Source of the DNA: Rufibacter sp. DG15C
GTDB taxonomy: Bacteria; Bacteroidota; Bacteroidia; Cytophagales; Hymenobacteraceae
Reading direction: 5' to 3'
DNA length: 64,000 nt
Assembly: GCF_001577755.1 (NCBI RefSeq)
Contig: NZ_CP010776.1
Location: 3,224,001 to 3,288,000 of the forward strand
In this document: piece after piece, positions 5,234 through 63,210 of the stretch
How the letters are laid out: every line of letters begins with the position of its first letter
Position numbering within the stretch: position 1 is the first letter of the stretch
Translations under genes and position numbers: made by a program
Notes under the pieces: model-generated
What the model was told of the DNA's origin: nothing
Seen by the model: the letters and a program-made list of their open reading frames with translations, nothing else
Databases searched by the model: none

Positions 5234-5277
5234 AGCTGTTTTTGGCCTGATTTTTAGAAATCAGGCCAAAAACAGCT
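5234..5277. repeat. palindromic intergenic repeat (GTTTTTGGCC family)
   Basis: A 44-bp near-perfect palindrome 15 bp after tsaD. The usual inner GTTTT/AAAAC pair is replaced in both arms by GATTT/AAATC, a compensatory change. The outer AGCTG/CAGCT pair is locus-specific. Confidence 0.9.
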
Positions 5278-5405
5278 ATTTGGAAAGTACCGTGCGGTTG
5301 AATTTTTAATCTACCCTAAACATTCCTACTTTCAACCTACTTTATTGTCTGTCGTTTATGTAATCCTAATAAGCTTTAACAGACACACCACCTAAGACTG
5401 TGGTT

Positions 5406-6887
5406 ATGCGAAACGTTCTCATCATCATCTTTACGTTCATGACTCTTATTCAAGCTCAATGTCAGACTGCCACCAATCATGTGCAACTTGCCAGAACGCT
5501 TTTTGAAGAATACAGCGGGTACCAGGAAGCCGCCATTCGGCACCGCCGCTTTAAACACAAGGACATTGTCCCGCTTCTAGAAAAACTAAAGCAGAACCCT
5601 CTGTTCCAAGTGCAGGTGGTAGGCAAGTCAGTGGAGCAGCGGGATATCTATTTAGTAAAAGTAGGCACCGGGCCGAACAAAATTATGCTTTGGTCCCAGA
5701 TGCACGGCGACGAGCCCACCGCCACCATGGCGCTGCTGGACATCTTCAACTTTTTGCAGGCCTCAGATGAGCTGGACCCTGTCAGGGAGGAAATCCTGAA
5801 GGAGAATACGCTCTACATCATGCCTATGCTCAACCCAGACGGGGCAGAGGTATACAAGCGCCGCAATGCGCTGGAGATTGATCTGAACCGCGACGCCCTG
5901 CGCCTGCAAAGCCCCGAGGCTCGCTTACTCAAGGCCCTGCGGGACAGCATCAAGCCGGCATTCGGGTTTAACTTGCATGATCAGAGCAGGTTGTACACGG
6001 TGGGCACTACGGCCAAACCAGCCACCATTTCTTTTCTGGCCCCCGCCTTTGACCATCAGCAGACCATCAACTCGGTGCGGGAGCGTGCCATGCGCACCAT
6101 TGTGGGCCTGAACCAGGCCGTGCAGCAGTTTATTCCGGGGCAGGTGGCTAAGTACTCAGATGAGCATGAGCCGCGCGCCTTCGGTGACAACATCCAGAAG
6201 TGGGGCACCAGCCTTATTTTGATAGAGTCGGGGGGCATGAAGGGCGATCCAGAGAAGCAGTACATCCGGCAGCTCAACTTCGCCACTATTCTCACGGCGC
6301 TCCACCTCATTGGCAAGAACGGTTACACCAAGTTTGACCGCGTAGACTATTACAAGATTCCAGAGAACCAGAAGAACCTGTATGACGTGGTGGTGCGCAA
6401 TGTGCGCTACAAAGAAAACGGCAAGAACTGCATTGTGGACTTCGGGGTGATCCAGGACGAAATAAGCGCCTCCATCCCGCAGCAGTTCTACCACAAGAGC
6501 ACCGTGGAGGAGATAGGGGACATGAGCGTCTTTTACGGCTACCAAGAGGTGGATGGCACGGGTCTAACGCTGGTGCCCGGCAAGGTGCTGGAGACCCCCA
6601 TCCAGGACTTGTCAGAGCTGACGCATGAGCGCCTCATCCAATTATTGTCTGAGGGGTACACCACCGTTAAGATGGAGACGCTGCCCCAGAGCGTTAACCC
6701 GGTAGAGCAGCTGCCTTTGAACGTGGTGCACGTGAGCGGAAAAGTGTCCCATGTACTGGCCCTAGACAGGATGGCGAATTTTGTCCTGAAGCAGGAGGAC
6801 GGCACCGTGCGCTATGCCATAGTGAACGGCTTTGTGTATGACTTGCAAGGCGAGCGCCCCAGGTTGTTTCATGGCTTGTTGCTGTAG
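5406..6887 (+). CDS. Secreted M14-family zinc carboxypeptidase
   Basis: The 493-residue protein has a cleavable signal peptide (residues 1-20, ending in AQCQT), so it is exported. The M14 metallo-carboxypeptidase fold is supported by the HxxE zinc motif in MHGDEPTATM (His100, Glu103), a distal ligand in FNLHDQ (His191), the substrate-binding Asn161-Arg162 in DLNRDA, and a catalytic Glu near 274 in LILIESGG. It should release C-terminal residues or cleave peptidoglycan-type peptides; the substrate cannot be told from sequence. An extra C-terminal region of about 170 residues follows the peptidase core and is unassigned. ATG 5406 gives the best signal peptide; an in-frame GTG at 5400 is the alternative. 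It is transcribed alone, with repeats on both sides. Confidence 0.9.
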   Translation: MRNVLIIIFTFMTLIQAQCQTATNHVQLARTLFEEYSGYQEAAIRHRRFKHKDIVPLLEKLKQNPLFQVQVVGKSVEQRDIYLVKVGTGPNKIMLWSQMHGDEPTATMALLDIFNFLQASDELDPVREEILKENTLYIMPMLNPDGAEVYKRRNALEIDLNRDALRLQSPEARLLKALRDSIKPAFGFNLHDQSRLYTVGTTAKPATISFLAPAFDHQQTINSVRERAMRTIVGLNQAVQQFIPGQVAKYSDEHEPRAFGDNIQKWGTSLILIESGGMKGDPEKQYIRQLNFATILTALHLIGKNGYTKFDRVDYYKIPENQKNLYDVVVRNVRYKENGKNCIVDFGVIQDEISASIPQQFYHKSTVEEIGDMSVFYGYQEVDGTGLTLVPGKVLETPIQDLSELTHERLIQLLSEGYTTVKMETLPQSVNPVEQLPLNVVHVSGKVSHVLALDRMANFVLKQEDGTVRYAIVNGFVYDLQGERPRLFHGLLL

Positions 6888-6891
6888 CCTC

Positions 6892-6929
6892 CGTTTTTGG
6901 CCTGTTTTCCAGAAAAGAGGCTAAAAACG
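6892..6929. repeat. palindromic intergenic repeat (GTTTTTGGCC family)
   Basis: A 38-bp copy starting 4 bp after the carboxypeptidase stop, with centre CCAG. The right arm has drifted (GAGGCTAAAAACG), leaving a few mismatches. Confidence 0.88.
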
Positions 6930-7019
6930 ACAATCAACGCTATTCTTAAACTCAGGTTATGGGATGCCCTTCCTGGTTTCAAAGCCTTAAAAAGGTAGAC
7001 ACCCACCCCCGAAATCCTA

Positions 7020-7058
7020 TAAACCGCTAGCCTTCTTTTTGGGGTTAGCGGTTTTTTT
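7020..7058 (+). terminator. Rho-independent terminator
   Basis: The stem AAACCGCTAGCC pairs with GGGTTAGCGGTTT and is followed by a run of seven T. It lies about 130 bp after the carboxypeptidase stop and before the SpmA-SpmB gene. Confidence 0.8.
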
Positions 7059-7111
7059 GTACCAGCTTTGTATCTTTCCGCTTCATTCCATTCTTTGATA
7101 ACCCTTTCTAC

Positions 7112-8344: not shown

Positions 8345-8350
8345 CAGGTT

Positions 8351-8386
8351 GTTTTTGGCCTGTTTTCCAGGAATCAGGCCAAAAAC
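8351..8386. repeat. palindromic intergenic repeat (GTTTTTGGCC family)
   Basis: A 36-bp copy 6 bp after the SpmA-SpmB stop, with centre CCAG. It is followed directly by a terminator hairpin. Confidence 0.9.
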
Positions 8387-8397
8387 GGGTTAGAAAT

Positions 8398-8440
8398 AAA
8401 ACAGAAGAGGCTCCCATTTGGGAGCCTCTTCTGTTTTTAC
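8398..8440. terminator. Bidirectional terminator between convergent genes
   Basis: AAACAGAAGAGGCTCCCA pairs with TGGGAGCCTCTTCTGTTT, with A/T tracts on both sides. It can serve the SpmA-SpmB gene on the plus strand and the susCD operon on the minus strand. Confidence 0.88.
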
Positions 8441-8454
8441 CAAGAAAGTAGGTT

Positions 8455-9693
8455 CTATAAATATTTCACTGAGAAGGTCAAAGTTGCAGGGGCGCCGGTT
8501 CCGGCATTTTTGGTGATGCCGGTCACCGTGAAAATAGCGAAGCGGTTCTGGCCTCTTAGCTTGGCAATGTACACGTCACCCACGGCGGCGTTGGAAATGG
8601 TCGCGCTGGCCGTGGCACTACCCCGCAGGTATTGGTAACTGATAGAATTATGCGTGGCAGCGTTGAACACCCCGGCGGTGGTTTTAACAAAGCGCGTGTC
8701 ATTTTTGCTGGCAAGGCTGAAGGCGCTGGCCGTGACAGAAGTAACCACTAGGTCTTTGGTAGCGTCAGGGGCGGTGGCGGCCACGTTGGTCTGCGCCAAT
8801 AAATCGTAGGCGGCCATGTCAGGGCTGGCTGCATTCAATTCCACCATGCCGGTGACAGGACCCGTTAATGCTGAGGGTGCAGTCACTTGGATGGGAGCAG
8901 CAGAGGCGGAGGCGGTCAGTTTAGGTCGTCTGGAAACTACTTCAAAGCGATAGGTAATGGACTTGCCTACGGAACCTGCCGGAACCTTCACCCCGAAGTT
9001 TCTGGAAATCGCGCCGGTGCCTGTCACCGCTTCTCTTCTCAGGAAGCGCTCGGCCTCGCCTTCAATAGTGTAGTAAATCCTAACGGAATCCACGGGCCGG
9101 TACAACTCGGCGGTATTTTCATTGATGGCTACGTTAAAGACCACCGAATCACCTTCGGCTGTGACCCCATTAAACGGCACGTTCAAGATACTTTTCACCG
9201 AAATGGTAGGCTGGGCCATTCCCACCTGCACATAGAAAGTCCTGATCAGGTTCAAGCCGTTCTCGTTCAAAATCTCCGTTTCCAGCTTGATCACCGACTT
9301 GCTAGGCACCTGCGGAACGGTGTAGTTGACGATGAGCGTATCGGTGCGGTCTGTCTGCGAGAAGGCCGGTTTGTACGGATAGGTTTGCACCTTGGTCCTG
9401 GCGCCCGTCCCGATGGTCTCATACAGGTTAATCTCTTTGATGGGGCTGTCTGAGAAGAAGCCTAGCTCAAAGGAGATTTTCTCGCCGGCGGCATAACTGT
9501 TGGGCGCAGTGGCCGAAGTAGAAAGGGCGATCCTGCCGTTGGCCAAATCAATCAAGTCATTGCCGCTTACGGGAACAGATCCCTTGCCGGTGGGCGTGGT
9601 GTTGTCTTTTATGAAATCTGGCTCGTCATAGCAAGAGGTAAGCAAGGCGCTCCCCAAGACCAGGACGAAAAGGTAGTTTATGATTCGTTTCAT
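8455..9693 (-). CDS. Outer-surface lipoprotein, third gene of the susCD operon
   Basis: This 412-residue lipoprotein has a signal sequence ending LLTSC, with the lipidation Cys at residue 21. The rest is predicted beta-rich, with no enzymatic motif that I recognise. It begins about 16 bp after the SusD-like gene and is surely co-transcribed with it. By position it resembles SusE/SusF-type accessory surface lipoproteins, which bind substrate outside the cell, but the sequence itself does not prove that. The protein may carry two or three immunoglobulin-like modules (segments near 50-150, 160-270 and 290-412). The operon ends at the bidirectional terminator just downstream. Confidence 0.75.
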   Translation of the reverse strand: MKRIINYLFVLVLGSALLTSCYDEPDFIKDNTTPTGKGSVPVSGNDLIDLANGRIALSTSATAPNSYAAGEKISFELGFFSDSPIKEINLYETIGTGARTKVQTYPYKPAFSQTDRTDTLIVNYTVPQVPSKSVIKLETEILNENGLNLIRTFYVQVGMAQPTISVKSILNVPFNGVTAEGDSVVFNVAINENTAELYRPVDSVRIYYTIEGEAERFLRREAVTGTGAISRNFGVKVPAGSVGKSITYRFEVVSRRPKLTASASAAPIQVTAPSALTGPVTGMVELNAASPDMAAYDLLAQTNVAATAPDATKDLVVTSVTASAFSLASKNDTRFVKTTAGVFNAATHNSISYQYLRGSATASATISNAAVGDVYIAKLRGQNRFAIFTVTGITKNAGTGAPATLTFSVKYL

Positions 9694-9709
9694 GTCTTCT
9701 AGTTTAAGA

Positions 9710-11170
9710 TTATAAGTCCCAGAACATTTTCTCAGCTAGGCCTTTGGTGACTTTGGCCACTTCCTCGGCGTTTCTGGCGCCTTCAGACTCTGGGTACAAC
9801 ACGCGTCTGATGAACTGTCCGTTCAAGGCCGGGTTGTGGTTGGCCGGCAAGGCCATGCCCGGGTAGATGGCCGAAGAATAGTCATAGCGGCGCACGTCCA
9901 CCCAGGACTCTGGGTTTAAGTACAAGGCAATGAGCTTCTCCTTCATGATCAGGGACAGCGTTAGGTTTTCGGGCCCCACGGCTACCTGTGGATTGGTGAG
10001 GTATGCGTTTTTATCGGCTGTGGCAATTCCCAACTTGTCCATGTGGGCATTTATGCCGGCCAGGTAGGCGGCGTAGGCTTCTGGGGTGCTGCCGGTAGAA
10101 GTTCTAGTGCCGCCATTGGCGATAAAACGGGCTTCGGCTTCAATAAACTTCATCTCACTGTAGGTAACCATCAACAACGGTGAGGCGGGTTTGGCATAAA
10201 AGGTATTAGCGGTGATGTTGGTGTTTCCGCCGGTGCCTGCGCCGTTTCTAATGCCCGCGTAGTTGGCCGTGGAGGTTCCTTTGTCTGCCATGAACGGCAG
10301 GCGCGGATCAACCAGACCAGCGTAGGTCACGCCGTTCATCATGTTAATGAGCGTGGCCGAAGGGGCCGTGATAAAGTTGCCCGTGGTGGTACCAATGGCG
10401 ATGTTGCGGTTCCAGGGGTTCAGGTTCTTATCGTTGAAGATGAGCTGCAGGTCATCGGCATTGGAAGAGATGCCCTTGGCTAGAAGGTTCAGGGCATTGT
10501 TGGCCGCAGCCACGCCGTCTTTTTCTACCAAATGGATGGCGTATCTGGCTTTCAAGGAATTGGCCGCCTTGATCCATCTGGAAATGTTGCCTCCGTAAAT
10601 CAAATCATCGCCGCCAGGTCTTACGGTTGAAGTAGGCTTTTGCAACTCCACGATGGCCTCATCCAACAAGCGCTGAATGGTGGTGTAAATCTGTTCCTGG
10701 CTATCATAAGCCGGGGTCAGTTCCAAAGGACCTTGAAACGCCTGCGAGAAAGGAACGGCGCCCCAGGTATCGGTCATCAGGCCCAGGTTCAAAGCCTGCA
10801 AGACTTTGGTGATGCCCACGTAATGCGAAGAACCTTCGGCCGAGGCTTGCTTTACCAATACGTCTGCGTTGTTTAGGCTGTTCAGGTAAATGGTGTTGAA
10901 GGCTATGTTGGCACGCACGTCAATGTGCTGGTCTGCCTGCTGAAAGCCCGAGGTGTAGGCCGCCAACTGCTGGGCAAACATAGAGGTGTAAATGGCCAGA
11001 CTGTAATGGGCCTCGGCCGTGGAGACGATGATAGGGGACAGCAACGCGTCTGAGCTTACCGTTTTGGCGCGGTTAGGATCATCGTTCACGTCCAGGTAGG
11101 AGTCACAGCTCGCCAACGGGAGCAGGGCCATCAAACCAAGGTGTATATATTTCTTAGATAGCTGTAGCAT
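9710..11170 (-). CDS. SusD/RagB-family nutrient-binding outer-membrane lipoprotein
   Basis: This 486-residue lipoprotein has lipobox LASC (Cys22), so it is exported by the Sec/Lol route and anchored at the outer membrane. The opening CDSYLDVNDDPNRA is typical of the SusD family, as are the helical segments NIAFNTIYLNSLNNADVLV and AANSLKARYAIHL. It should act as the hinged lid over the partner SusC barrel and capture nutrients. Overall pattern resembles the SusD-like subgroup that is not restricted to glycans. ATG 11170 is preferred: it gives a proper lipobox and lies 10 bp after the susC stop, while the in-frame start at 11194 would overlap susC. No enzyme or regulator gene is adjacent, so the substrate is unknown. 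Confidence 0.93.
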   Translation of the reverse strand: MLQLSKKYIHLGLMALLPLASCDSYLDVNDDPNRAKTVSSDALLSPIIVSTAEAHYSLAIYTSMFAQQLAAYTSGFQQADQHIDVRANIAFNTIYLNSLNNADVLVKQASAEGSSHYVGITKVLQALNLGLMTDTWGAVPFSQAFQGPLELTPAYDSQEQIYTTIQRLLDEAIVELQKPTSTVRPGGDDLIYGGNISRWIKAANSLKARYAIHLVEKDGVAAANNALNLLAKGISSNADDLQLIFNDKNLNPWNRNIAIGTTTGNFITAPSATLINMMNGVTYAGLVDPRLPFMADKGTSTANYAGIRNGAGTGGNTNITANTFYAKPASPLLMVTYSEMKFIEAEARFIANGGTRTSTGSTPEAYAAYLAGINAHMDKLGIATADKNAYLTNPQVAVGPENLTLSLIMKEKLIALYLNPESWVDVRRYDYSSAIYPGMALPANHNPALNGQFIRRVLYPESEGARNAEEVAKVTKGLAEKMFWDL

Positions 11171-11180
11171 GGTCAAACAA

Positions 11181-14100
11181 TTAGAGGGTAACATTCAAAC
11201 CAAATGTGAAGCTGCGCACCGCCGGAATGCCGTACCCGGTGTACCCCAGGGCATTGCTGCCCGAGCCGTAGGTAGGCGTCTCTGGGTCAAAGCCTTCAAA
11301 AGGCGTAATCAGGAACAAGTTGCTGCCCGTTAAGCTAAACCGCACGCTCTTGAACGGAGTTCTACCAATTAAGCTGTTGGGCAGGGTATAGGCCAGTTGT
11401 GCGTTTCTCAGGCGCACCCAGGAGGCGTCTTGCAACAACACGTCTGCGGCGTCATTGAAACCACCCGAGTTGCGGTAATAGCCTTCCTCCAAAATAACGG
11501 GAATATTGTTGGGCTCGCCTGCGGCATTCACGCCATTGAAGACAATCTGCTGATAGCGGTTTTCGGTTCTAATGTCAATCCCGTTTCTGATGCGGTTCCG
11601 CATGGACACATCGTACACATCACCTCCTTGACGAATCTCCAATAAAGCCGATAAGCTCAAGCCTTTGTAAGAAATGGTGTTGGTAATGCCGCCTTGCCAG
11701 TCTGGCAGCGCGTTGCCCACTTTCACCAGAGCCGTGGCCGGCGTCAAGGTAGGGAAGCCGTTGGCGCCAATGATTAAGCGGCCTTGGCTATCGCGCTGAA
11801 AGACGCGGCCGTACAGGTCACCGGCTGAGCCACCCACCACCAGTTTATTCATGATGCGGTCATCCTGGAAGATAATCTCTGGGACGGCGGGAGTAATGGA
11901 CTTTACTTCGCTCTCGTTGGTAGACCAGTTTACCACCACTTCCCAGTTAAAGTCTGCGGTTTTCACCGGCGTGCCGGTCACCAATAATTCAACGCCCGTG
12001 TTCTGGATCTCGCCGGCGTTGGTGGTGTAATTGGTGATGCCTGATGTCACGCTGGAAGGCACTGGGATGATCTGGTCTTTGGAGTTGGAGCGGTAATACG
12101 TAGCGTCAACCACCAAGCGGCTTTGCAGGAAATGCAGCTCAGAACCAAACTCAATGGACGTAGTGGTTTCTGGCTTCAATTCTGGGTCTCCCAAGGTGGT
12201 GCTCACTACAAACCCGTTTCTATTCCCGAACGGGAAACCGCTGGCCGCGCCAAAGTACGTGCCCACGCGGTAGGGTTGGGTGTCTTTCCCTACCTCGGCC
12301 CAGGACGCCCTTACCTTCCCGAAGTTAAAGAACCGGTTACTTTCTAGGGCCAGGGGCTCTGAGAAGACAAAGCTGGTGCTCACAGATGGGTAGAAGAAGG
12401 AACGGTTCTTTTTAGGCAGGGTAGAGGTCCAGTCATTGCGGCCGGTCACGTTCAAAAACAAGTAGTTTTTATAGTCTGCCTTGGCGTCAAAGAAAGCACC
12501 AATCAAACGACGGTCACTGATGGCGTTAGTAGTGAACACATTAGCGGTGTTAGACAAATGATAAAACAAAGGTACCGTGAAGCGCTCGCCGCGAGTGTTT
12601 AAGATGTCTGAGAACTGCCCTTCTACAGAGTTACCAATCATGATGGAGGCGTTAATGTCCTCAGAGAAAGAATGCTCTGCGGTCAAAAAAGCATTAGAGG
12701 TCAGCTCGCGGTAGTTCACGCGTTCTTCCACCAAGAAGCCACCCGTGCCCGCGGCAATGTCCAGCGTGGGCGCACCTTGGAAGATAGGGCCCGGCACCAG
12801 GCGGTTGCGGTTGTCGCTGTACACGTCTGCGCCAATCTTATAGTTGAAACGCAACCATGGTTTGAAGTCATAGTTGAAGCCCACATTCCCGATGACGCGG
12901 TTCACGTCGTCTTTCAAGGTGCTCACCTCTGCTAGGTAGCGCGGGTTGTCAATCACGCCCGGCGAGTACACCTTCATGGTCCCGTCTGGATTCAGGTAGT
13001 CGTTCACGTCAAAGGTGGTGGTGTGGTAGTTGAGTGCCGACATGATGCCTTTGTCACCAGAGGCCGCTTTGTTCCCGCCCGACTGGCTGTAGCTCACGGT
13101 TCCGTTCACGGCAAACTTCTCTGAGAAATTAACGTTTCCGCCCAACTTTACCGTGGTACGCGCCCAGTCAGAATTAGGGGCGATGCCTTCTTGGTTGTAG
13201 TGCGAAAGGGACGTGTGGAAGGTGGCTTTCTCATTGCCGCCAGATATGCTTATGTTGTTGTCAAAACGCTTGCCGGTCTGGAAGAAGTCATAGAAGTTGT
13301 CATACACCTTGTCATCCCCGGCCACGGGCGGCCCGAAGGTCTGGAAACGGTTAGGCGCGCCCGTAGAGGTAAAGCGCAGCCTGCCGCTTAGGCCCTCGCG
13401 GTACCGGGTCTGCACCTCTGGCGTTTGGTTGATGTTGTCAATGCCAAAGTTAGAAGACAAAGTCACAGTAGTCGCCCCGGCTTTGCCTTTTTTGGTGGTG
13501 ATGATGATGGCGCCGTTGGCGGCGCGCAAGCCATACAAAGCGGTGGCGGCGGCTCCTTTCAGCACGGTCATGCTTTCCACGTCTTCGGGGTTGATGTCGG
13601 CGGCGCGGTTGGTGAAGGCAAACTGCTCGGCGCTGTTCACGGCGTTGGAACCGGCGCTGGGCAGTTGGTTGCCGGCAATGGTTTCATTGGAGATGGCAAT
13701 CCCGTCAATCACGAACAAAGGCTGGTTATTGGCCCCCGGCGATAGGGAGTTAATGCCCCTGATCTGGATTCTGGAACCGGCCCCTGGCGTACCGCCTGAG
13801 CCTAACACCTGCACCCCGGCCACGCGGCCTTGTAGAGAGTTCACCACGTTGGGGTTCTGGGTCTGGGCAATCTGGGCAGCGCCCACCTCCTGCACGGAGT
13901 ACCCCAAAGTCCGTTTCTCCTGCTCCCGTCCGAAGGCGGTGACCACCACTTCCTGCAGGGCCTGCACATCGGCTTGCAAAGACACGTTGATGGAGGTTCT
14001 GCCATTCACGGCCACTTCTTGGGTGGTAAAACCAATAAAGGAAATGACCAAGGTGGCGTTAGGGGAGGGAATAGACAGCGAGTAGTTGCCTTCTACGTCT

Positions 14101-14267: not shown

Positions 14268-14500
14268 GCAATTTTTGGTTAAGGGGAAAATAAAATTGGT
14301 CAGAAAGCAGATAGTTGATGGCTTTAATTTAAGGATTATTTGACCTTCTGCTACAGAAAAAGCGAATAAGAAAAATGAAAATTAAATGGAGGGTACATTC
14401 TAACTATCAGAGCCTTGACTTCGCTACGGTAGAGCAATCTTAAACCATATTCAACTTAGAAAAGGAAGCAGTACATTTACACCCCTTACATAGCTTATTT

Positions 14501-14540
14501 CTGTTTTTAACCTCATTTGGCCAAAACAGGCCAAAAACGA
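14501..14540. repeat. diverged palindromic repeat abutting a start codon
   Basis: The left arm CTGTTTTTAACCTCATTT is drifted and the right arm AAAACAGGCCAAAAACGA is canonical. Unlike the other copies it lies in a 5' leader, ending 4 bp before the ATG of the metallo-beta-lactamase-fold gene. The remaining 14268-14500 region is AT-rich and should hold the promoters for both divergent genes; no clear TAnnTTTG box was found. Confidence 0.8.
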
Positions 14541-14544
14541 TCTT

Positions 14545-15555: not shown

Positions 15556-15569
15556 CCGTCCACTACCGT

Positions 15570-15607
15570 CGTTTTTGGCCCGTTTTCCAGGAAACAGGCC
15601 AAAAACG
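15570..15607. repeat. palindromic intergenic repeat (GTTTTTGGCC family)
   Basis: A 38-bp copy 14 bp after the hydrolase stop, with centre CCAG. Arms pair nearly perfectly apart from one central position. Confidence 0.9.
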
Positions 15608-15737
15608 GAATCCTATCCATAGCTGCTTTTACTTTGTCATGGATACTTGGCTTGTCTCATTGCCAAGTCAGTTTTCTGGACCCAAGTCCCTTCTTTTCCG
15701 TATGACCAGGTATCGTTTCACTTAAACCAATTGGATT

Positions 15738-18922: not shown

Positions 18923-18968
18923 ACCCCGTTTTTAGTCTGTTTTTAATAAATCAGGTCAAAAACGGGGT
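18923..18968. repeat. palindromic intergenic repeat (GTTTTTGGCC family), variant
   Basis: A 46-bp copy with outer arms ACCCCG/CGGGGT and both core arms changed from GGCC to AGTC and GGTC. This G-to-A or C-to-T drift leaves only a small mismatch. It lies 29 bp after the plug-like gene. Confidence 0.82.
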
Positions 18969-25317: not shown

Positions 25318-25332
25318 TACCTCACGTTTAAT

Positions 25333-25381
25333 CCATAAAAAGAGCCCCAAAACGATAATCGTTTTGGGGCTCTTTTTATGG
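25333..25381. terminator. Strong bidirectional terminator between convergent genes
   Basis: A 49-bp palindrome: CCATAAAAAGAGCCCCAAAA pairs with its complement around GATAATC, with A/T tracts on both sides. It can end cphA (plus) and the coiled-coil gene (minus). Confidence 0.93.
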
Positions 25382-25397
25382 AAACAGGCTAAAAACG
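25380..25397. repeat. Half copy (one arm) of the palindromic repeat
   Basis: GGAAACAGGCTAAAAACG is the right arm of the dispersed repeat, fused directly to the end of the terminator hairpin. The left arm is absent. Confidence 0.7.
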
Positions 25398-25401
25398 CAG
25401 C

Positions 25402-27072: not shown

Positions 27073-27115
27073 ATTATGTACTTTTGGCTTTTGGATCAGC
27101 TAGATGACTAGGCTT

Positions 27116-27153
27116 CGTTTTTGGCTTGTTTTTGAGGAAACAAGCCAAAAATG
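27116..27153. repeat. palindromic intergenic repeat (GTTTTTGGCC family)
   Basis: A 38-bp copy 43 bp after the methyltransferase stop. Both arms carry GGCTTG/CAAGCC in place of GGCCTG/CAGGCC, a matched change. Confidence 0.9.
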
Positions 27154-27220
27154 ACGAAATTTACAAGATTGACTACCTGTGGCTTTTTCCTGATGTACTG
27201 CTCACTGATAACTGTTTCTC

Positions 27221-28033: not shown

Positions 28034-28208
28034 TGATCAATGAATAGTGATTGATGACTTTTAAACCAAAATTGGTTTAAAAGTTAATTGCCAATTTAAA
28101 AGAGAAGTCCGTTTTTGGCCTGTTTTATGTAAAACAGGCCAAAAACGGACTTCTCTTTTAAAGACCAAGACTAATCATTAGTCATTAATCACTGGTCATT
28201 GATCATTA
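28031..28208. repeat. Stop-codon-to-stop-codon inverted repeat containing two inner palindromes
   Basis: TAATGATCAATGA...AGTGATT (28031-28058) is complementary at about 25 of 28 positions to 28181-28208. The left arm starts with the kdsA TAA and the right arm ends with the TTA that is the stop of the convergent methyltransferase. Inside lie an exact 28-bp palindrome (28057-28084) and a 68-bp one (28095-28162). Confidence 0.85.
28095..28162. repeat. palindromic repeat with long locus-specific arms
   Basis: A 68-bp palindrome with arms of about 33 bp. The conserved core (28111-28146) is embedded in TTTAAAAGAGAAGTCC and its complement, sequences not shared with other copies. It may also terminate both convergent genes. 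Confidence 0.93.
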
Positions 28209-30176: not shown

Positions 30177-30221
30177 ATAAAAGCGAAGGCCACCTTAAGA
30201 TAAGGTGGCCTTCGCTTTTAT
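30177..30221. terminator. Bidirectional terminator
   Basis: ATAAAAGCGAAGGCCACCTT pairs with its full complement around a 3-nt loop, with A/T at the ends. It serves ung (plus) and probably the lepB operon (minus). Confidence 0.92.
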
Positions 30222-30230
30222 AAATGAATT

Positions 30231-30268
30231 CGTTTTTGGCCTTTATTCTGGAAATCAGGCCAAAAATG
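30231..30268. repeat. palindromic intergenic repeat (GTTTTTGGCC family)
   Basis: A 38-bp copy ending 8 bp before the lepB stop codon. Centre CTGG, inner arms partly mismatched. Confidence 0.86.
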
Positions 30269-30276
30269 AAAGGGTT

Positions 30277-35212: not shown

Positions 35213-35520
35213 CGGGAAATAAAAGATACTTTTTACCGCAACTTATTAACACTTAGCGGGTATTTATCCCCATTTTCAACAAGCGTCCACTTGAAGCTGA
35301 ACCTCTTATAGGATTTGGTAAAGGATTGACCGTTAGAAGGTAAAGAGTGGAATTGCCTTGAATGGCCAGTGAAAGTATCCCTTGAGTAACGGCTGGGTTA
35401 AAGACGGGCTGTTCTTGTACTATTCTCTAACTGATTCTATGCGAGGATTAGTGTTTTTAGCACATGACCGTCGCCTTCTAATTGCACTTCAAGTAGCAAG
35501 GTGGGCTTTTAGAATCCTCG
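35213..35520. other. Gene-free region between the parAB operon and yidC
   Basis: No coding frame was accepted here. TTATTAACA (35243-35251) and TTATCCCCA (35264-35272) each resemble the DnaA box TTATCCACA, with two and one mismatches. The region is AT-rich only at its left end. The rest shows nothing that I recognise. Confidence 0.4.
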
Positions 35521-35556
35521 GTTTTTGGCTTCTTTTCTAGAAAACAGGCCAAAAAT
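35521..35556. repeat. palindromic intergenic repeat (GTTTTTGGCC family)
   Basis: A 36-bp copy with self-complementary centre CTAG and a few arm mismatches. Confidence 0.86.
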
Positions 35557-35587
35557 GGCAAATCAAATGATAGACCTAATGTTTAAC

Positions 35588-39198: not shown

Positions 39199-39252
39199 CA
39201 GTCCTTCGTTTTTGGCCTTATTTCTGGAAAACAGGCCAAAAACGAAGGACTG
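39199..39252. repeat. palindromic intergenic repeat with locus-specific arms
   Basis: A 54-bp palindrome, core plus CAGTCCTTC/GAAGGACTG outer arms. It lies between the NTF2-like gene end and the pyrG promoter region. Confidence 0.92.
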
Positions 39253-41080: not shown

Positions 41081-41151
41081 GTAGTAGTTTTAGAAGGCGC
41101 CTGTAACGGCAAAAGGAAATATAACTAGGTCTATAAACAGGCTGTTCTTAT

Positions 41152-41191
41152 CCATTTTCGGCGTCTTTTCTGGAAAAGAGGCCGAAAACGG
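41152..41191. repeat. palindromic repeat, co-varied variant
   Basis: A 40-bp copy in which TTTTTGG becomes TTTTCGG and the other arm CCAAAAA becomes CCGAAAA. The inner GTTTTC pair likewise becomes CTTTTC/GAAAAG. Changes in both arms match. Confidence 0.9.
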
Positions 41192-41202
41192 AAAGTTAGT
41201 TT

Positions 41203-43080: not shown

Positions 43081-43242
43081 TTGAATGAGTGATTGAGTGA
43101 ATGATTGAATTTTAAATTAAACCTCAGTACGAATAGTATGAATATTAAAATGGCGTTTTTGGGCCAATTTCTAAGAAACAGCCCAAAAACGCCACTTTAA
43201 TATTCATCTTTCTCTCATTCAGTCTATCTCTCCATCCATCAT
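43081..43242. repeat. Low-complexity arms around a 66-bp palindromic repeat
   Basis: TGAATGAGTGATTGAGTGAA-type sequence at 43081-43110 is loosely mirrored by CTCATTCAGTCTATCTCTCC-type sequence at 43212-43240. The core palindrome is 43140-43205. Confidence 0.6.
43140..43205. repeat. palindromic repeat with locus-specific arms
   Basis: A 66-bp copy. The core is GTTTTTGGGCC/AGCCCAAAAAC and the outer arms are GAATATTAAAATGGC and GCCACTTTAATATTC (one mismatch). Confidence 0.88.
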
Positions 43243-45112: not shown

Positions 45113-45170
45113 AGAGGATGGCTGGTTGTACTATTGACGATTTAAGAACGGCTTAATAAAAACATAAAAG

Positions 45171-45210
45171 CCATTTTTTGCTTATTTTCCAGAAAATAGG
45201 CTAAAAACGG
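45171..45210. repeat. palindromic intergenic repeat (GTTTTTGGCC family)
   Basis: A 40-bp copy with centre CCAG. Inner arms TATTTTCC/GAAAATA are co-varied relative to the consensus. It lies 9 bp after the DUF3822 stop (minus strand). Confidence 0.88.
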
Positions 45211-45219
45211 AGGGTGAAC

Positions 45220-49173: not shown

Positions 49174-49176
49174 TCT

Positions 49177-49254
49177 GTTTTTGGCCTATTTTCCAGAAAG
49201 CAACGCAAAAACGCCTCTCTAGCTTTTAAGCTAGAGAGGCGTTTTTGCGTTGCT
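49177..49254. repeat. Chimeric element: palindromic repeat merged with a second, perfect hairpin
   Basis: A repeat copy (49177-49212) has a normal left arm, but its right arm reads GAAAGCAACGCAAAAACG. That altered arm is the left arm of a second 56-bp palindrome (49199-49254) ending GCGTTTTTGCGTTGCT, in which pairing is exact. The second hairpin may terminate the DUF1573 gene. The following 49255-49424 holds no gene that I can see. Confidence 0.85.
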
Positions 49255-49424: not shown

Positions 49425-49484
49425 AGAAAGAAATTCATTTTTGGCTTGTTTTCTGGAAAACAAGCCAAAAATGAATTTCTTTCT
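49425..49484. repeat. palindromic repeat with long locus-specific arms
   Basis: A 60-bp palindrome, nearly perfect: AGAAAGAAATTCAT outer arms around GGCTTGTTTTCT/GGAAAACAAGCC. Confidence 0.93.
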
Positions 49485-50595: not shown

Positions 50596-50604
50596 TTCTT
50601 TGGG

Positions 50605-50704
50605 ATTTAAGACGCAAGATATAAGACACAAGATTTCTTTTTAAATCACCAATTATATATGACTGAAGGAGTCTTGAATCTTATGTCTTACGTCTTGTGT
50701 CTAT
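50605..50704. repeat. inverted low-complexity arms (AGACACAAGACGCAAGA family)
   Basis: AAGACGCAAGATATAAGACA at 50610-50629 is mirrored by TCTTATGTCTTACGTCTTGTG at 50679-50699 (shown in part). Arms of about 25 nt can pair across a 45-nt loop. The unit AAGACRYAAGA repeats quasi-tandemly. Confidence 0.7.
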
Positions 50705-52695: not shown

Positions 52696-52706
52696 GCCTT
52701 TTTTAA

Positions 52707-52746
52707 CCGTTTTTGGCCTACTTTCCAGAAAACAGCCTAAAAACGG
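52707..52746. repeat. palindromic intergenic repeat (GTTTTTGGCC family)
   Basis: A 40-bp copy with centre CCAG and a few mismatches. It lies inside the Bat locus, between the DUF58 gene and the BatD-like gene. Confidence 0.87.
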
Positions 52747-52807
52747 CCAGTGCTTGCGTGTAGTATTTCGCTATTCTTATTTAAGCTGAAGCCAGCACAC
52801 CGTTACC

Positions 52808-54172: not shown

Positions 54173-54179
54173 CTTTCCT

Positions 54180-54219
54180 CCGTTTTTAGCCTGATTTCCG
54201 GAAAATAAGCTAAAAACGG
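54180..54219. repeat. palindromic intergenic repeat (GTTTTTGGCC family)
   Basis: A 40-bp copy filling the 47-bp space between convergent DUF4296 and csaA. The centre is self-complementary CCGG; GTTTTTAGC/GCTAAAAAC is a co-varied pair. Confidence 0.9.
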
Positions 54220-54558
54220 TTACAACAACCTCTTGCCGTTGGGCACCGGCTGCTGCGGTTGGGCCAGTACTATGTGCTTGTTAGCATCTTCAAAACCGGT
54301 CACCAGCACCTCAGACATCCAGGGGCCAATCTGCTTAGGCGGGAAATTGGTCACGCACAACACCTGTCTTCCTACCAGCTCTTCTAATGAGTAATGGTGC
54401 GTAATCTGCGCGCTTGATTTTTTGATGCCCAGGTCGCCTAGGTCTACCCAAAGGCGGTAAGCGGGTTTGCGGGCTTCGGGGAAAGGCTCTGCCTGAATGA
54501 TCGTTCCCACTCGCAGGTCCACGGCCATGAATTGATCCCAGGTGATGTGTTGATCCAT
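54220..54558 (-). CDS. csaA: CsaA-type tRNA-binding protein
   Basis: This 112-residue protein is a single OB-fold tRNA-binding domain. Signatures are FMAVDLRVGTIIQAEPFPEARKPAYRLWVDLGD (split near 10-42), SSAQITHHYSLEELVGRQVLCVTNFPPKQIGP and SEVLVTGF. It binds tRNA and is described as having export-related chaperone activity in Bacillus. ATG 54558 gives the exact family length; an in-frame start at 54690 would add 44 foreign residues. Confidence 0.95.
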   Translation of the reverse strand: MDQHITWDQFMAVDLRVGTIIQAEPFPEARKPAYRLWVDLGDLGIKKSSAQITHHYSLEELVGRQVLCVTNFPPKQIGPWMSEVLVTGFEDANKHIVLAQPQQPVPNGKRLL

Positions 54559-58288: not shown

Positions 58289-58338
58289 TGAGTGAGTGAG
58301 TGAGTGAGTGAGTGAGTGAGTGAGTGAGTGAGTGAGTG
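58289..58338. repeat. (TGAG)12 tetranucleotide microsatellite
   Basis: Twelve exact TGAG units (58289-58336) plus TG, bounded on the right by a palindromic repeat at 58340. It is outside coding sequence. Confidence 0.97.
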
Positions 58339-58339
58339 C

Positions 58340-58377
58340 CGTTTTTGGCCAGATTCCCAGAAAGCAGGCCAAAAACG
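58340..58377. repeat. palindromic intergenic repeat (GTTTTTGGCC family)
   Basis: A 38-bp copy between the microsatellite and the aminotransferase stop, with centre CCAG and two or three mismatches. Confidence 0.88.
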
Positions 58378-58385
58378 AGGGCGAC

Positions 58386-59483: not shown

Positions 59484-59695
59484 CTATTTATTTGCTGGTT
59501 ATTGATTGCTGATTGTTGAATGATGAACGAGAGCAAGTAAATCCTTCCGTTTTAAATCGATGGCAAAGTACAAGAGACCATTTACATTTCCTCCTAAAAA
59601 TAAGAATCCGTTTTTGGCTTGCTTTCTGGAAAACAGGCCAAAAACGGATCTTGGGTAGCATCATTAATCAGCAACTAACAATCAACAATCAGCAA
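59484..59695. repeat. Low-complexity inverted arms around a palindromic repeat
   Basis: ATTGCTGATTGTTGA (near 59503-59518) is complementary to TCAACAATCAGCAAT (near 59682-59696), and the right arm reaches the egtD stop codon. The core repeat sits at 59606-59649. Confidence 0.75.
59606..59649. repeat. palindromic intergenic repeat (GTTTTTGGCC family)
   Basis: A 44-bp copy with centre CTGG and outer arms AATCCG/CGGATC (last base mismatched). Confidence 0.9.
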
Positions 59696-60703: not shown

Positions 60704-60711
60704 AGTTTTGT

Positions 60712-62004
60712 CTATTTCTGGGCCAGACGTATGCCGGTGAATTGCCAGCGTTTGTCGGGGTGAAAGAAATTGCGGTAGGTGATTCTTATATGGCTTTGCG
60801 GCGTGGCGCAAGACCCGCCGCGCAACACCATTTGGTTAATCATGAACTTGCCATTGTATTCGCCAATGGCGCCGGGTGCGGTTTCAAAACCCGGGTAAGG
60901 CAGGTAGGCGCTGTACGTCCATTCCCAGGCATCGCCTAAGAGTTGAACTACAAGTACATTCTCATCTGCTTGAAAGGCTTGCTGTGGTTGTAATTTTTGG
61001 GACTCCAGGAAGTTTCCAGCGGCGGGGCTTCCGGCGTGCAACTGTGCCAGAGCTTCCCACTCAAATTCGGTGAGGAGCCGGTTGCTGCTCCAATTGGCAT
61101 AGGCCTGGGCCTCATAAAAACTGATGTGCGTGACGGGCGCCTGCAGGTCTAGTTTCTGTAAACCGTGCAGAGTGTACTGGAACCATTCATCGTCTTGCTT
61201 GAGCCAGTACAAAGGCGCCTCCCATTGCTGCAGCTGCACCAAATCCCAGCCTTCGCCCAGCCAGTACACAAAGTTCTGGTAGCCGCCAGCCTCTATGAAT
61301 CTCAGGTACTCCTGGTTGGTCACCAGCCAGGCGCGGGCCTTGAATTCTGCCAGGTACACTTGGTGTTGGTTCAACTCATTGTCAAAGCAGAAGCCGTCAC
61401 CCTGATGGCCAATCTGGTAGAGTCCGGCGGGTACGGTGACCCATTCATTTTTGGGCTGTTTTCCAGGTTTCAGGCCAAAATCAGGGTTAGATTCTGGCAG
61501 ATACGCGGGCAGCATGGGGTTGCAGGAGAGAATGTATTTGATGTCGGTGACCAGGAGTTCTTGGTGCTGTTGCTCATGCTGCAGTCCCAGTTCAAATAGC
61601 GGGGTTTTGTCTTCGTTCTCAGGTAGGAAATCACTTTGCAGCAGCGTCTCCATGGCTTTGTTTACATGCCGGCGGTAGGCCAGAATATCTGCCAGGGGAG
61701 GTCTAGACAAAGTGCCCCGCTCGGCGCGGTTCACGCGGCTGCCCAGGGTGTTGTAGTAGGAGTTGAACAGAAAACCGTACTGCGGGTGAAACTCTTGGTA
61801 ATTTGGCGCATGCGGTTTTAAGATGAAGGTCTCAAAAAACCACGTGGTGTGCCCCAGGTGCCATTTAGGCGGACTCACATCCACCATGGGCTGCATGACC
61901 GTATCCTCTGGCGTGAGTGGGGCGCATAGGTCTTCTGTTTGCTTTCTGATGCTCTGGAAACGGGCCAAGAGGGTGGCAGATATACCTTGATCGGGCGTAG
62001 ACAT
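60712..62004 (-). CDS. egtB: Ergothioneine biosynthesis protein EgtB (iron-dependent sulfoxide synthase)
   Basis: This 430-residue two-domain protein couples hercynine to a thiol donor with oxygen. The N-terminal DinB-type bundle carries the iron ligands His52 (WHLGHTTWFFETF), His143 and His147 (LQHEQQHQELLVTDI). The C-terminal part (about 188-430) is the formylglycine-generating-enzyme-like fold ending GGSCATPQSHIRITYRNFF. The linker (about 174-187, DFGLKPGKQPKN) is encoded by a diverged copy of the palindromic repeat. No egtC or egtE homologue is adjacent, so cysteine rather than gamma-Glu-Cys may be the donor; that is inference. Confidence 0.93.
   Translation of the reverse strand: MSTPDQGISATLLARFQSIRKQTEDLCAPLTPEDTVMQPMVDVSPPKWHLGHTTWFFETFILKPHAPNYQEFHPQYGFLFNSYYNTLGSRVNRAERGTLSRPPLADILAYRRHVNKAMETLLQSDFLPENEDKTPLFELGLQHEQQHQELLVTDIKYILSCNPMLPAYLPESNPDFGLKPGKQPKNEWVTVPAGLYQIGHQGDGFCFDNELNQHQVYLAEFKARAWLVTNQEYLRFIEAGGYQNFVYWLGEGWDLVQLQQWEAPLYWLKQDDEWFQYTLHGLQKLDLQAPVTHISFYEAQAYANWSSNRLLTEFEWEALAQLHAGSPAAGNFLESQKLQPQQAFQADENVLVVQLLGDAWEWTYSAYLPYPGFETAPGAIGEYNGKFMINQMVLRGGSCATPQSHIRITYRNFFHPDKRWQFTGIRLAQK
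61446..61485. repeat. diverged palindromic repeat inside the egtB coding sequence
   Basis: TTTTTGGGCTGTTTTCCAG on the left and CAGGCCAAAATCAG on the right match the dispersed repeat around the CCAG centre, with mismatches near the loop. The copy lies in the EgtB interdomain linker and keeps the reading frame. Confidence 0.75.
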
Positions 62005-62088
62005 GGTTTTTTAATGTTCTAGTCTTCTCTAAACTAGAATTCGCCCGAAAGGTTATACCTTCATGTTCCAAATCCGTTCCTCTGTCAC

Positions 62089-63165
62089 ATGCCCTTCGTC
62101 CTGACCCCCTTTCAGAGAGCCCTACAGTTCAAGTTTGACGCCCGCACCTCGCGCGGGGCTATGCAGACGCACCAGGCCCATTTTATACGGGTGCACCACA
62201 CGGATAATCCAGCTAAGCAGGGGTGGGGAGAATGCTCGCCGCTGCCAGGTCTCAGTCCAGATTATTCCGCAGATTTTTTTGAATTGCTGCAAACGCTTTG
62301 CCAGCAGTACAATGCCCTGGAAAGTGATTCTTATGAGGATGAAAAAGGGTTTGCCTTCTGGAAGAGTCTAGAGCAGTGGCCTTCTGTGAACTTCGGGTTT
62401 GAGACGGCTTTTGTGGACTACATGCGCGGCGGCGATTTTCAGTTGTACCCCAGCGCCTTCGCCCGGTCTGAACAGGGCATCAAAATAAACGGGTTGGTGT
62501 GGATGGGCGACCCAGCGTTCATGCGGGAGCAGATTAAGAAGAAGCTGGCGCAAGGATTTACTTGTCTAAAACTAAAGATTGGTGGCTTGGACTTTGCGCA
62601 GGAGCTGAGTATTCTGGAAGAAATAAGAAGAGTTGCCAGCCCCGAAGCAATGGAGCTGCGGCTAGACGCCAATGGAGCTTTTGACCCAACTGAAGCACTT
62701 TTTAAGTTAGACCAACTGGCCAGGTTTTCCATCCATTCCATTGAACAGCCCATCAGACAAGGACAAGGGAAAGAGATGCGCGAGGTTTGCCAGCACTCGC
62801 CCATTCCTGTGGCGCTGGATGAGGAGTTGATTGGCGTGGTAGGCAAGGAGAATCGTTGGGAACTGCTAAAAGCCCTGGAGCCTGCCTACATCATCATCAA
62901 ACCTACCTTGGTGGGCGGCCTTACCGCCAGCCGAGAATGGATACAGGTGGCGCAATCCATGCAAGTGGATTGGTGGATGACCTCGGCGCTGGAGTCTAAC
63001 ATTGGGCTCAACGCCATTGCGCAATTTGCCGCCAGCTTCCAAAACCCCTTGCCGCAAGGACTGGGCACGGGACAATTGTACCATAACAACCTGGCTTCAC
63101 CATTAGAAATAAGAGGCGAGGAACTCTGGTACGCCAAAGACAAAGCATGGGAACTGCCTACCTAG
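62089..63165 (+). CDS. menC: Enolase-superfamily o-succinylbenzoate synthase (MenC-like)
   Basis: This 358-residue protein has the muconate-lactonising/MenC set of catalytic residues: KLKIGG (Lys161, Lys163), metal ligands Asp193 (LRLDANGAF), Glu219 (SIEQP) and Asp244 (ALDEE), and Lys271 in IIIKPTLVGG. MenC dehydrates SHCHC to o-succinylbenzoate in menaquinone synthesis. Some relatives are dipeptide epimerases or N-acyl amino-acid racemases, so the call depends on other men genes in the genome; none are in this window. The motif set itself is clear. It is convergent with the sirtuin gene. Confidence 0.86.
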   Translation: MPFVLTPFQRALQFKFDARTSRGAMQTHQAHFIRVHHTDNPAKQGWGECSPLPGLSPDYSADFFELLQTLCQQYNALESDSYEDEKGFAFWKSLEQWPSVNFGFETAFVDYMRGGDFQLYPSAFARSEQGIKINGLVWMGDPAFMREQIKKKLAQGFTCLKLKIGGLDFAQELSILEEIRRVASPEAMELRLDANGAFDPTEALFKLDQLARFSIHSIEQPIRQGQGKEMREVCQHSPIPVALDEELIGVVGKENRWELLKALEPAYIIIKPTLVGGLTASREWIQVAQSMQVDWWMTSALESNIGLNAIAQFAASFQNPLPQGLGTGQLYHNNLASPLEIRGEELWYAKDKAWELPT

Positions 63166-63172
63166 AGATTTC

Positions 63173-63210
63173 CGGTTTTGGCCTGTTTTCCAGAAATTGG
63201 GGTAAAAACG
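63173..63210. repeat. diverged palindromic repeat
   Basis: The left arm CGGTTTTGGCCTGTTTTCC is canonical and the right arm AGAAATTGGGGTAAAAACG is drifted. It lies 7 bp after the menC stop. Confidence 0.8.

What the first reader, a model, noticed from the sequence alone, without database searches (positions are those of the whole stretch)
5234..63210. Dense family of short palindromes placed just after stop codons
Seen: about 21 intergenic copies plus one intragenic and one half copy in 64 kb, with conserved arms GTTTTTGGCCTGTTTTC and a CCAG or CTGG centre. Most start 4-45 bp after a stop codon, and convergent gene pairs share one copy. The stem is not followed by a T-tract (its flanks are A5 and T5 that pair with each other), so it is not a typical intrinsic terminator; many loci have a separate classical terminator beside it. 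Known analogues are REP/BIME elements spread by RAYT transposases and mRNA 3'-stabilising hairpins. I do not know of a published description for this lineage.
Basis: partly seen in the sequence, partly recalled or inferred. Interest (0 to 1): 0.75.

Follow-up and report, generated by a model that had tools for sequence, protein, structure and literature searches.

The report
Genome-wide 42-bp DNA palindromes in Rufibacter
Roughly 1,500 copies of a 42-letter DNA palindrome sit mostly between the genes of this bacterium; they look like a sequence-specific mark kept in place copy by copy, not like jumping DNA, and what reads the mark is unknown.

Summary
23 copies lie in the window. A 464 kb sample of the genome holds 173, against 0 in shuffled sequence: about 1,540 per genome by extrapolation. 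All 16 genomes of the genus (Rufibacter, inferred) match; 23 genomes of other genera do not.

It does not look like RAYT-driven REP DNA. The own genome has no Y1 transposase, and 12 RAYT neighbourhoods read in congeners carry other repeats. Against one congener, 22 of 23 positions are kept. T-tracts differ at 7% of sites although fourfold sites differ at 43%. Orthologous copies are no more alike than unrelated ones.

In 165 copies the inner arms do not covary; the arms look alike whichever way the gene runs. Species have 'dialects'. Copies inside two genes persist or improve by point changes.

I read it as a DNA dyad bound by an unidentified protein and kept like an uptake sequence: tolerated mostly after stop codons, rare after low-GC genes and on the part read of a Rufibacter plasmid. 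A 3'-end role remains a serious rival: some copies' T5 doubles as a terminator U-tract. The mechanism is untested.

The parts
5235..5276 (.). dyad copy, 16 nt after stop of the + gene ending 5218
6890..6931 (.). dyad copy, 2 nt after stop of the + gene ending 6887
8348..8389 (.). dyad copy shared by convergent genes ending 8344 (+) and 8455 (-)
14500..14541 (.). weaker dyad copy just before the + ORF at 14545, divergent gap
15568..15609 (.). dyad copy, 12 nt after stop
18925..18966 (.). dyad copy, 31 nt after stop
25358..25399 (.). dyad copy whose left half is also the 3' arm and T-tract of a classical terminator; the only window copy without a full counterpart in G013
27114..27155 (.). dyad copy, 41 nt after stop of the TPMT-like gene
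28108..28149 (.). dyad copy inside a longer palindrome (outer run of 16 pairs counted from column 3), convergent gap after the gene 27221-28033 (kdsA by recall)
30229..30270 (.). dyad copy, convergent UDG / signal-peptidase gap, after a classical terminator at about 30180-30219
35518..35559 (.). dyad copy, 87 nt after a - strand stop, behind a classical terminator
39205..39246 (.). dyad copy, 14 nt after a - strand stop, outer run of 9 pairs
41151..41192 (.). dyad copy, 10 nt after a - strand stop
43152..43193 (.). dyad copy, 49 nt after a - strand stop, outer run of 14 pairs
45170..45211 (.). dyad copy, 8 nt after a - strand stop
49174..49215 (.). dyad copy directly after the stop of the DUF1573 gene; its right arm is also the 5' arm of the terminator at 49200-49253
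49434..49475 (.). dyad copy, 45 nt after a - strand stop, outer run of 12 pairs
52706..52747 (.). dyad copy, 60 nt after a - strand stop (DUF58 gene)
54179..54220 (.). dyad copy in a short convergent gap
58338..58379 (.). dyad copy, 6 nt after a - strand stop
59607..59648 (.). dyad copy, 47 nt after a - strand stop
61444..61485 (.). intragenic dyad copy in the linker between the DinB_2 and FGE-sulfatase domains of the - strand ORF 60712-62004; the same codons reach own-matrix score 12 in 12 of 15 readable genes of the genus (own counted)
63171..63212 (.). degraded dyad copy in a convergent gap

Best explanation
Each copy is one 36-42 bp sequence-specific DNA dyad (half-site about CGTTTTTGGCCTGTTTTC, two T-tracts one helical turn apart) that a still unidentified, probably dimeric DNA-binding protein reads. 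Copies are kept one by one through point mutation and selection or biased replacement, not through transposition. They lie wherever they do least harm: mostly just after stop codons and beside terminators, now and then in an inter-domain linker. I think it most likely works like the DNA uptake sequences of Neisseriaceae and Pasteurellaceae: a genome-wide self mark, kept by biased uptake and recombination, that drifts into species dialects. SHOWN by computation: genome-wide dyads, restriction to the genus among the genomes searched, positional conservation, per-column constraint, lack of inner covariation, strand symmetry, dialects, change without insertion in two genes, rarity after low-GC genes and on the part read of one plasmid. 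INFERRED: a protein reader, the biased-uptake drive, and that placement after stops is tolerance rather than function.
For: About 1,540 copies per genome by extrapolation. Own versus G013: 22 of 23 positions kept; in 21 paired copies the T-tract and edge columns differ 7%, middle columns 36%, outermost columns 69%, and fourfold-degenerate sites of 50 gene pairs 43%, which fits constraint on letters better than re-insertion or blanket homogenisation. Orthologous copies are no more alike than random ones (22 pairs, 31.1 v 30.9 of 42, permutation p = 0.30). No covariation in inner pairs of 165 copies. No clear arm asymmetry relative to transcription in 105 copies (two of 20 testable columns at p = 0.03). 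Isolated half-sites at chance level, so the unit is the whole dyad. Species consensus differs (TTTTTGGCC, TTTTCGGGC, TTTAGGGGC, TTTTGGGCC) while GTTT and the inner TTT stay. Intragenic copies: DinB/FGE-sulfatase linker, own-matrix score 12 or more in 12 of 15 readable genes, G008 at 11.97, no indel there except one extra residue in G012 and a gap in G011, which lacks the dyad. In the GT2 gene, 12 of 16 have KRQKK; own has NRLKK, G013 KRLKK, G012 MSRKK. Compared with the common codons in the same place, the actual codons raise the score under the species' own matrix by 8.2, 6.2 and 4.7 bits; under the matrix of own, those of G012 lower it by 5.1, so G012's change fits its own dialect only. Gene ends with a copy: 2 of 15 for genes under 42% GC, 98 of 147 above 50%. 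A Rufibacter plasmid has 2 copies in the 95 kb read of its 235 kb, against about 35 at the own chromosomal density. Sequence information is about 50 bits, against about 11 needed to find 1,540 sites (my arithmetic); that uptake sequences show a similar excess is recalled. ComEC is in 16 of 16 genomes of the genus; this is permissive only.
Against: No uptake sequence known to me is a 42-bp dyad; DUS and USS work as single units (recalled), but here single halves are absent. Copies lie nearer to stops than uniform placement predicts (36 of 86 within 15 nt against 23 +/- 3.3), although a wider promoter-avoidance zone could do this. In 9 of 25 co-directional copies 36-70 nt from the stop, a hairpin abuts the T5 so that T5 can serve as a U-tract (antisense control 2 of 104), which suggests a transcriptional use. 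Outer flanks pair more than chance (runs of 9 or more in 11 of 165, null 0.2%), columns 1, 3, 8, 9, 11 and 20 covary at z 2.8-5.2 (Watson-Crick), and in the 21 window copies the covariation score is reached by only 2 of 500 shuffles. At the level of whole stretches, density does not follow GC (Spearman 0.18, p = 0.43, 21 stretches). In dialect-poor species the trained matrices also hit shuffled DNA (13 against 52 real in G008, 6 against 47 in G015), so those dialects are unreliable. In the GT2 gene most congeners score 14-35 bits, probably from the protein motif alone, G007 reaches 46 with KRQKK, and no outgroup shows which motif is ancestral. G003 and G011 lack the linker dyad. The plasmid may be poor in copies simply because it is foreign. 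No reader protein, competence phenotype or uptake bias has been shown. ComEC rings in 10 of 14 control genomes, E. coli among them.
Confidence: 0.4

Rival explanations
1. Chromosome-structure site: the dyads bind an abundant chromosomal protein (nucleoid, topology or segregation) and are kept by weak selection at each site; no uptake is involved.
For: Everything that shows a DNA-level dyad fits equally; copies are spread round the chromosome; T-tracts about one helical turn apart (column centres 7 and 18, 25 and 36) suggest a bent or narrow-groove target.
Against: Change of a motif shared by most congeners in a GT2 domain, for one of about 1,500 redundant sites, would need appreciable per-site selection; 50 bits of sequence is far more than binding needs; no candidate protein was found or sought.
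Confidence: 0.25
2. 3'-end element: the dyad ends, pauses or protects transcripts from both sides, as a protein roadblock, a T-tract pause or a 3' hairpin that stops exonucleases after Rho termination.
For: Bias to stops; co-directional ends whose copy lies close to the stop rarely have a separate terminator; T5 usable as U-tract in a subset; mean folding energy -14.5 against -5.2 kcal/mol for shuffled copies, and long outer stems in 11 of 165; conserved after the same genes, e.g. the UDG gene in 14 of 15 readable genomes.
Against: A copy in the middle of a gene in most congeners and copies in 12 of 41 divergent gaps; no inner covariation; no clear polarity relative to the gene; with T5 unmasked, classical terminators are if anything commoner with a copy than without (0.40 v 0.28 in own).
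Confidence: 0.25
3. REP- or MITE-like mobile palindrome, spread by a transposase now lost and held by homogenisation.
For: REP-like size, extragenic bias, genus restriction; RAYT-type genes exist in 15 of 15 other congeners; a few symmetric double changes between the arms; Bacteroidetes RAYT subclass 2.6 goes with atypical REPs without the GT[AG]G foot (PMC6006769, passages).
Against: No Y1 transposase match in the own genome; the 12 RAYT neighbourhoods read carry other REPs; orthologous positions kept 22 of 23; column-specific constraint; two intragenic copies without insertion. Transposases of other kinds were not searched for.
Confidence: 0.07

Closest known systems
DNA uptake sequences (DUS of Neisseriaceae, USS of Pasteurellaceae)
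   Same: Thousands of dispersed copies, species dialects, inverted pairs associated with terminators in intergenic DNA (PMC3630211, passages read); no transposase (recalled); rare in likely foreign DNA here.
   Different: Here the unit is an obligatory symmetric dyad of 36-42 bp, single halves are at chance, nearly all copies are outside genes, the host is a Bacteroidota genus, and uptake is untested.
REP / BIME elements with RAYT (TnpA_REP) transposases
   Same: Short extragenic palindromes, hundreds to thousands of copies, often next to stop codons.
   Different: No GT[AG]G foot (although one Bacteroidetes RAYT subclass also lacks it), no RAYT match in this genome, not the flanking repeats of the congeneric RAYTs read, kept in place with per-column constraint. 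Features of REPs from PMC6006769 and PMC3733652 (passages).
CGTC-tagged REPs (Di Nocera et al. 2013)
   Same: Palindromes without a dedicated transposase, reported in five phyla including Bacteroidetes (PMC3733652, passages).
   Different: Those carry CGTC at one end; this dyad is symmetric with CGTT/AACG at both ends.
Bidirectional intrinsic terminators
   Same: Palindromes between convergent genes; some copies share arms or T-tract with one.
   Different: Polarity is reversed (T...A instead of A...T), so no U-tract of its own follows the hairpin.

Membership tests
REP element of the RAYT type | GT[AG]G tetranucleotide at the foot of an imperfect hairpin (canonical types) | tested here: not met
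   Column composition of 165 copies: both ends read YCG-T5 ... A5-CGR. Not decisive alone: subclasses 2.6 (Bacteroidetes) and 3 have REPs without this foot (PMC6006769, passages)
REP element of the RAYT type | Association with a RAYT gene in the genome | tested here: not met
   0 Y1_Tnp matches in the own genome, 5 of 14 control genomes ring; of 20 congeneric RAYT neighbourhoods fetched, the flanks of 12 were read and all 12 carry other hairpin repeats by eye
REP element of the RAYT type | Moves as an inserted unit (empty sites without it) | tested here: inconclusive
   22 of 23 positions shared with G013; two intragenic copies without insertion; G013-only copies exist, but intergenic empty sites are too diverged to judge
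DNA uptake sequence | Hundreds to thousands of copies with species dialects | tested here: met
   (extrapolated)
DNA uptake sequence | Single units occur and suffice | tested here: not met
   Isolated half-sites 2 at threshold 14, shuffles 5, 3, 9
DNA uptake sequence | Rare in recently acquired DNA | tested here: met
   2 of 15 low-GC gene ends; 2 copies in 95 kb of plasmid; but no density-GC correlation across 21 stretches
DNA uptake sequence | Competence machinery (ComEC channel) | tested here: met
   16 of 16 genomes of the genus, not specific evidence; an uptake receptor or pilus was not searched for
DNA uptake sequence | Raises uptake or transformation of DNA that carries it | not testable with these tools
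   Needs experiment
Intrinsic terminator | GC-rich hairpin followed by a U-tract | tested here: not met
   T5 is inside the 5' arm, A5 inside the 3' arm; a subset uses T5 with another hairpin upstream
RNA hairpin element | Compensatory change across the stem | tested here: inconclusive
   None in columns 12-19 with 24-31 (Watson-Crick z -1.8 to 1.2), modest at columns 1, 3, 8, 9, 11, 20 and in the flanks; 21 window copies: 10 of 19 pairs with double changes against 6.0 in shuffles
Rfam families | Match at gathering score | tested here: not met
   Only a tRNA in the window

The most novel reading that the evidence does not exclude
Rufibacter carries a genus-wide chromosomal self mark of a new kind: an obligatory 42-bp dyad in about 1,500 copies, written into any tolerant DNA including codons, rewritten into species dialects by biased replacement, and read by an unknown protein. 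It would be the first uptake- or identity-type sequence known to me in the Bacteroidota.
Probability: 0.3. Interest if true: 0.9.

Novelty: new variant of a known kind. Interest (0 to 1): 0.72.

Why it matters
That would make two open questions testable in an environmental bacterium: how repeated genome marks change dialect across thousands of sites, and whether sequence-specific DNA uptake exists in the Bacteroidota. If the 3'-end rival holds instead, it would be a general way to bound transcription units. I found no description in print: five searches of the held library aimed at this element gave nothing relevant (Bacteroidetes with palindromic, intergenic and 'downstream of stop codon', 0; Hymenobacteraceae with 'REP elements', 0; Rufibacter with palindromic, 2 papers with off-topic titles, listing seen; uptake sequence with Bacteroidetes, natural transformation and overrepresented, 0; Rufibacter with genome, intergenic, repeats, 0). 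Most subscription journals are not held.

Tried and rejected
RAYT origin: rejected as unlikely. Rfam: no family. Single half-sites as the unit (plain DUS or USS): rejected. Relic of dead insertions: rejected because the copies stay near consensus while fourfold sites differ by 43%. Phage origin: a degenerate exact pattern finds nothing in viral contigs (one scan). Same family in sister genera under the same consensus: none at 11 bits or more in 400 kb of 9 genomes, two weak hits of 9.0 and 10.7; the palindromes seen there are mostly terminator-type, with no T...A family. Order-wide: of 148 genomes, own plus one weak place in G090 (stricter filters, best 43 candidates per genome scored). Centre CCAG or CTGG relative to the gene: 28 against 18, not used as evidence.

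Led nowhere: a stricter 28-nt pattern in the own genome (0 hits at 2 mismatches); literature searches on REP with stop codons (2 papers listed, not read), REPIN with RAYT (0) and bidirectional terminators (0). One search used an option that tblastn lacks and returned no alignments; one search repeats it correctly. The background figure for coding 75-mers (2 of 1,967 at 10 bits or more) comes. Limits: genes are longest ORFs; the weak dialects rest on few copies; the intragenic argument rests on 2 of the 7 calls that lie deep in an ORF; the other 5 were not followed across the genus; no search for the reader protein or for non-Y1 transposases was made.
Full report
WHAT IS THERE. One family of 42-bp palindromes, consensus TCCGTTTTTGGCCTGTTTTC-YR-GAAAACAGGCCAAAAACGGA, in 23 places of the window. 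A symmetric matrix finds 173 copies at 10 bits or more in 464 kb of this genome, 0 in one Markov-shuffled copy; extrapolated, about 1,540 in 4.14 Mb. The covariance model R1, built from 21 window copies, matches all 16 genomes of the genus and none of 23 genomes of other genera at E 0.001 (the best 150 candidates per genome were scored). In a wider draw of 148 genomes of the order it finds own and one weak place in a 1-Mb genome. The consensus core with a YR centre occurs exactly in one named contig, of Rufibacter ruber, from which I infer the genus.

WHERE IT LIES. Of 173 copies, 91 are between co-directional genes, 35 between convergent, 14 between divergent, 28 overlap a longest-ORF call and 5 are at edges. 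Of gene ends followed by a gap of 60 bp or more, 133 of 232 have a copy: 2 of 15 for genes below 42% GC, 98 of 147 above 50%. Across whole stretches, density does not correlate with GC (rho 0.18, p 0.43), though the low-GC parts of L018 and L036 are empty. Co-directional copies crowd the stop: 36 of 86 within 15 nt, 23 expected if uniform up to 30 nt before the next ORF. Several divergent cases lie between two long ORFs.

TERMINATORS. With the element masked, 12 of 86 element-bearing co-directional gaps have a separate classical terminator, against 17 of 73 without an element. Unmasked, the figure for all own gene ends is 0.40 with an element against 0.28 without, because the T5 of the element can serve as a U-tract. 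A strong hairpin abuts that T5 in 9 of 25 co-directional copies at 36-70 nt and in 4 of 22 convergent sides, against 2 of 104 on the antisense side. The palindromes of sister genera are mostly ordinary A...T terminators.

NOT RAYT-REP. The own genome has no Y1_Tnp match, while 5 of 14 control genomes ring. All 15 other genomes of the genus have such genes. I fetched 20 neighbourhoods and read the flanks of 12. By eye, each carries other hairpin repeats; the palindrome studied here lies near some of them at no constant distance.

CONSTRAINT. G013 shares 22 of 23 positions. Over 50 orthologous pairs (89% amino-acid identity) fourfold sites differ 43%. In 21 paired copies (the coding copy and 25358 left out), T-tract and edge columns differ 7%, middle columns 36%, the outermost four 69%. 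Orthologous copies match at 31.1 of 42 positions, non-orthologous at 30.9, permutation p 0.30 (22 pairs). Old insertions without function would have decayed; copy-paste homogenisation would not spare some columns and free others. So each copy seems constrained on certain letters.

DNA OR RNA. In 165 copies the inner pairs (columns 12-19 with 24-31) pair no more often than shuffled partners; columns 1, 3, 8, 9, 11, 20 and some flank positions do. In the 21 window copies alone, 10 of 19 pairs have double changes (shuffles 6.0) and the covariation score is reached by 2 of 500 shuffles. Outer runs of 9 or more pairs occur in 11 of 165 (null 0.2%), some of them terminator-like; mean folding energy is -14.5 kcal/mol against -5.2 for shuffled copies. 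In 105 copies oriented by their gene, the 5' and 3' arms have nearly the same composition; the lowest of 20 column p-values is 0.03. Half-sites without a partner are at chance. I conclude that a strand-symmetric dyad is read as DNA, with some copies also built into terminators. The flank pairing is unexplained and speaks for the rival.

DIALECTS. Own, G013 and G001 (97% and 91% identical in the protein of 27221-28033, kdsA by recall) use TTTTTGGCC, G012 TTTTCGGGC-TCATTTC, G005 TTTAGGGGC, G006 TTTTGGGCC; GTTT and the inner TTT stay. Matrices of G008 and G015 also hit shuffled DNA and are unreliable. Gene ends keep the element across the genus: after the UDG gene in 14 of 15 readable genomes (absent in G008; G001 not readable), after the kdsA-like gene in 12 of 16, at own-matrix score 12 or more, some of them weak. 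At these two ends and at the DUF58 gene most congeners have it within about 30 nt of the stop; own and G013 have it 60-103 nt away.

INSIDE GENES. The window copy at 61444 lies in the linker between DinB_2 and FGE-sulfatase domains. At the same codons, 12 of 15 readable genes (own included) score 12 bits or more with the own matrix; G008 has 11.97, G003 5.1, and G011 has a gap there; the G001 gene is broken and was not scored. Background: 2 of 1,967 coding 75-mers reach 10 bits. In the GT2 gene at L036:16712, 15 of 16 genes reach 12 bits, but most of them (14 to 35 bits) probably owe this to the protein motif LLFLSxFPGKRQKKAA. Own, G013, G007 and G012 reach 40-52. Twelve of 16 have KRQKK, G001 VRQKK, own NRLKK, G013 KRLKK and G012 MSRKK. 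The actual codons of own, G013 and G012 raise the score over the common codons by 8.2, 6.2 and 4.7 bits under each species' own matrix; under the matrix of own, G012's codons lower it. No insertion is involved. I infer that dyads can improve in place by point change, even in a motif that most congeners share; that KRQKK is ancestral rests on majority, not on an outgroup.

MOBILE DNA. On a 235-kb Rufibacter tibetensis plasmid, the 95 kb that I read (50% GC) hold 2 copies; about 35 would be expected at the own chromosomal density. The viral collection has no exact match to a degenerate pattern.

READING. The pattern (copy number, dialects, in-place change, kept positions without locus memory, tolerant sites, rarity in likely foreign DNA, about 50 bits of sequence) is what biased uptake and recombination produce for DUS and USS. 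PMC3630211 (passages) describes thousands of copies, dialects and terminator-associated inverted pairs; the molecular-drive argument and the information comparison are from my own knowledge. It is not a member of that family: single halves are absent and uptake is untested. ComEC is present in 16 of 16, which only fails to refute. A structural chromosome protein and a 3'-end factor are the serious rivals.

Noticed in passing
L102-L121 (congeneric RAYT neighbourhoods): Congeners carry several RAYT-like genes, mostly about 180 aa, with REP types of their own (for example GGCGCGAGCTTGCAGCTCGTGTC-like, AAGTTTATAAACTT, GCGGATTTGCAATCCGC); the own genome has no match.
   Followed up: partly
49200-49253: Behind the DUF1573 gene the right arm of the palindrome is also the 5' arm of a 24-bp terminator stem, so the two hairpins exclude each other; many congeners show the same layout.
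   Followed up: partly
25332-25399: A classical terminator's 3' arm and T-tract double as the left half of a palindrome in own; G013 has the terminator without the full dyad: a possible case of birth in place, or of loss in G013.
   Followed up: partly
8455-14267: A block of three - strand genes (one SusD-like, one TonB receptor, one without Pfam match) lies here in own between two palindromes that are 235 bp apart in G013.
   Followed up: no
58317-58337; 50595-50633; 63941-64000: Simple repeats: TGAG tandem repeats, and degenerate TAAGACGCAAGA-type repeats next to gene ends.
   Followed up: no
L156: The DinB/FGE-sulfatase gene of congener G001 is broken (one in-frame stop, two pieces).
   Followed up: no
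L018:5001-20000: Low-GC stretch (35-41% GC per 5 kb) without palindromes.
   Followed up: partly
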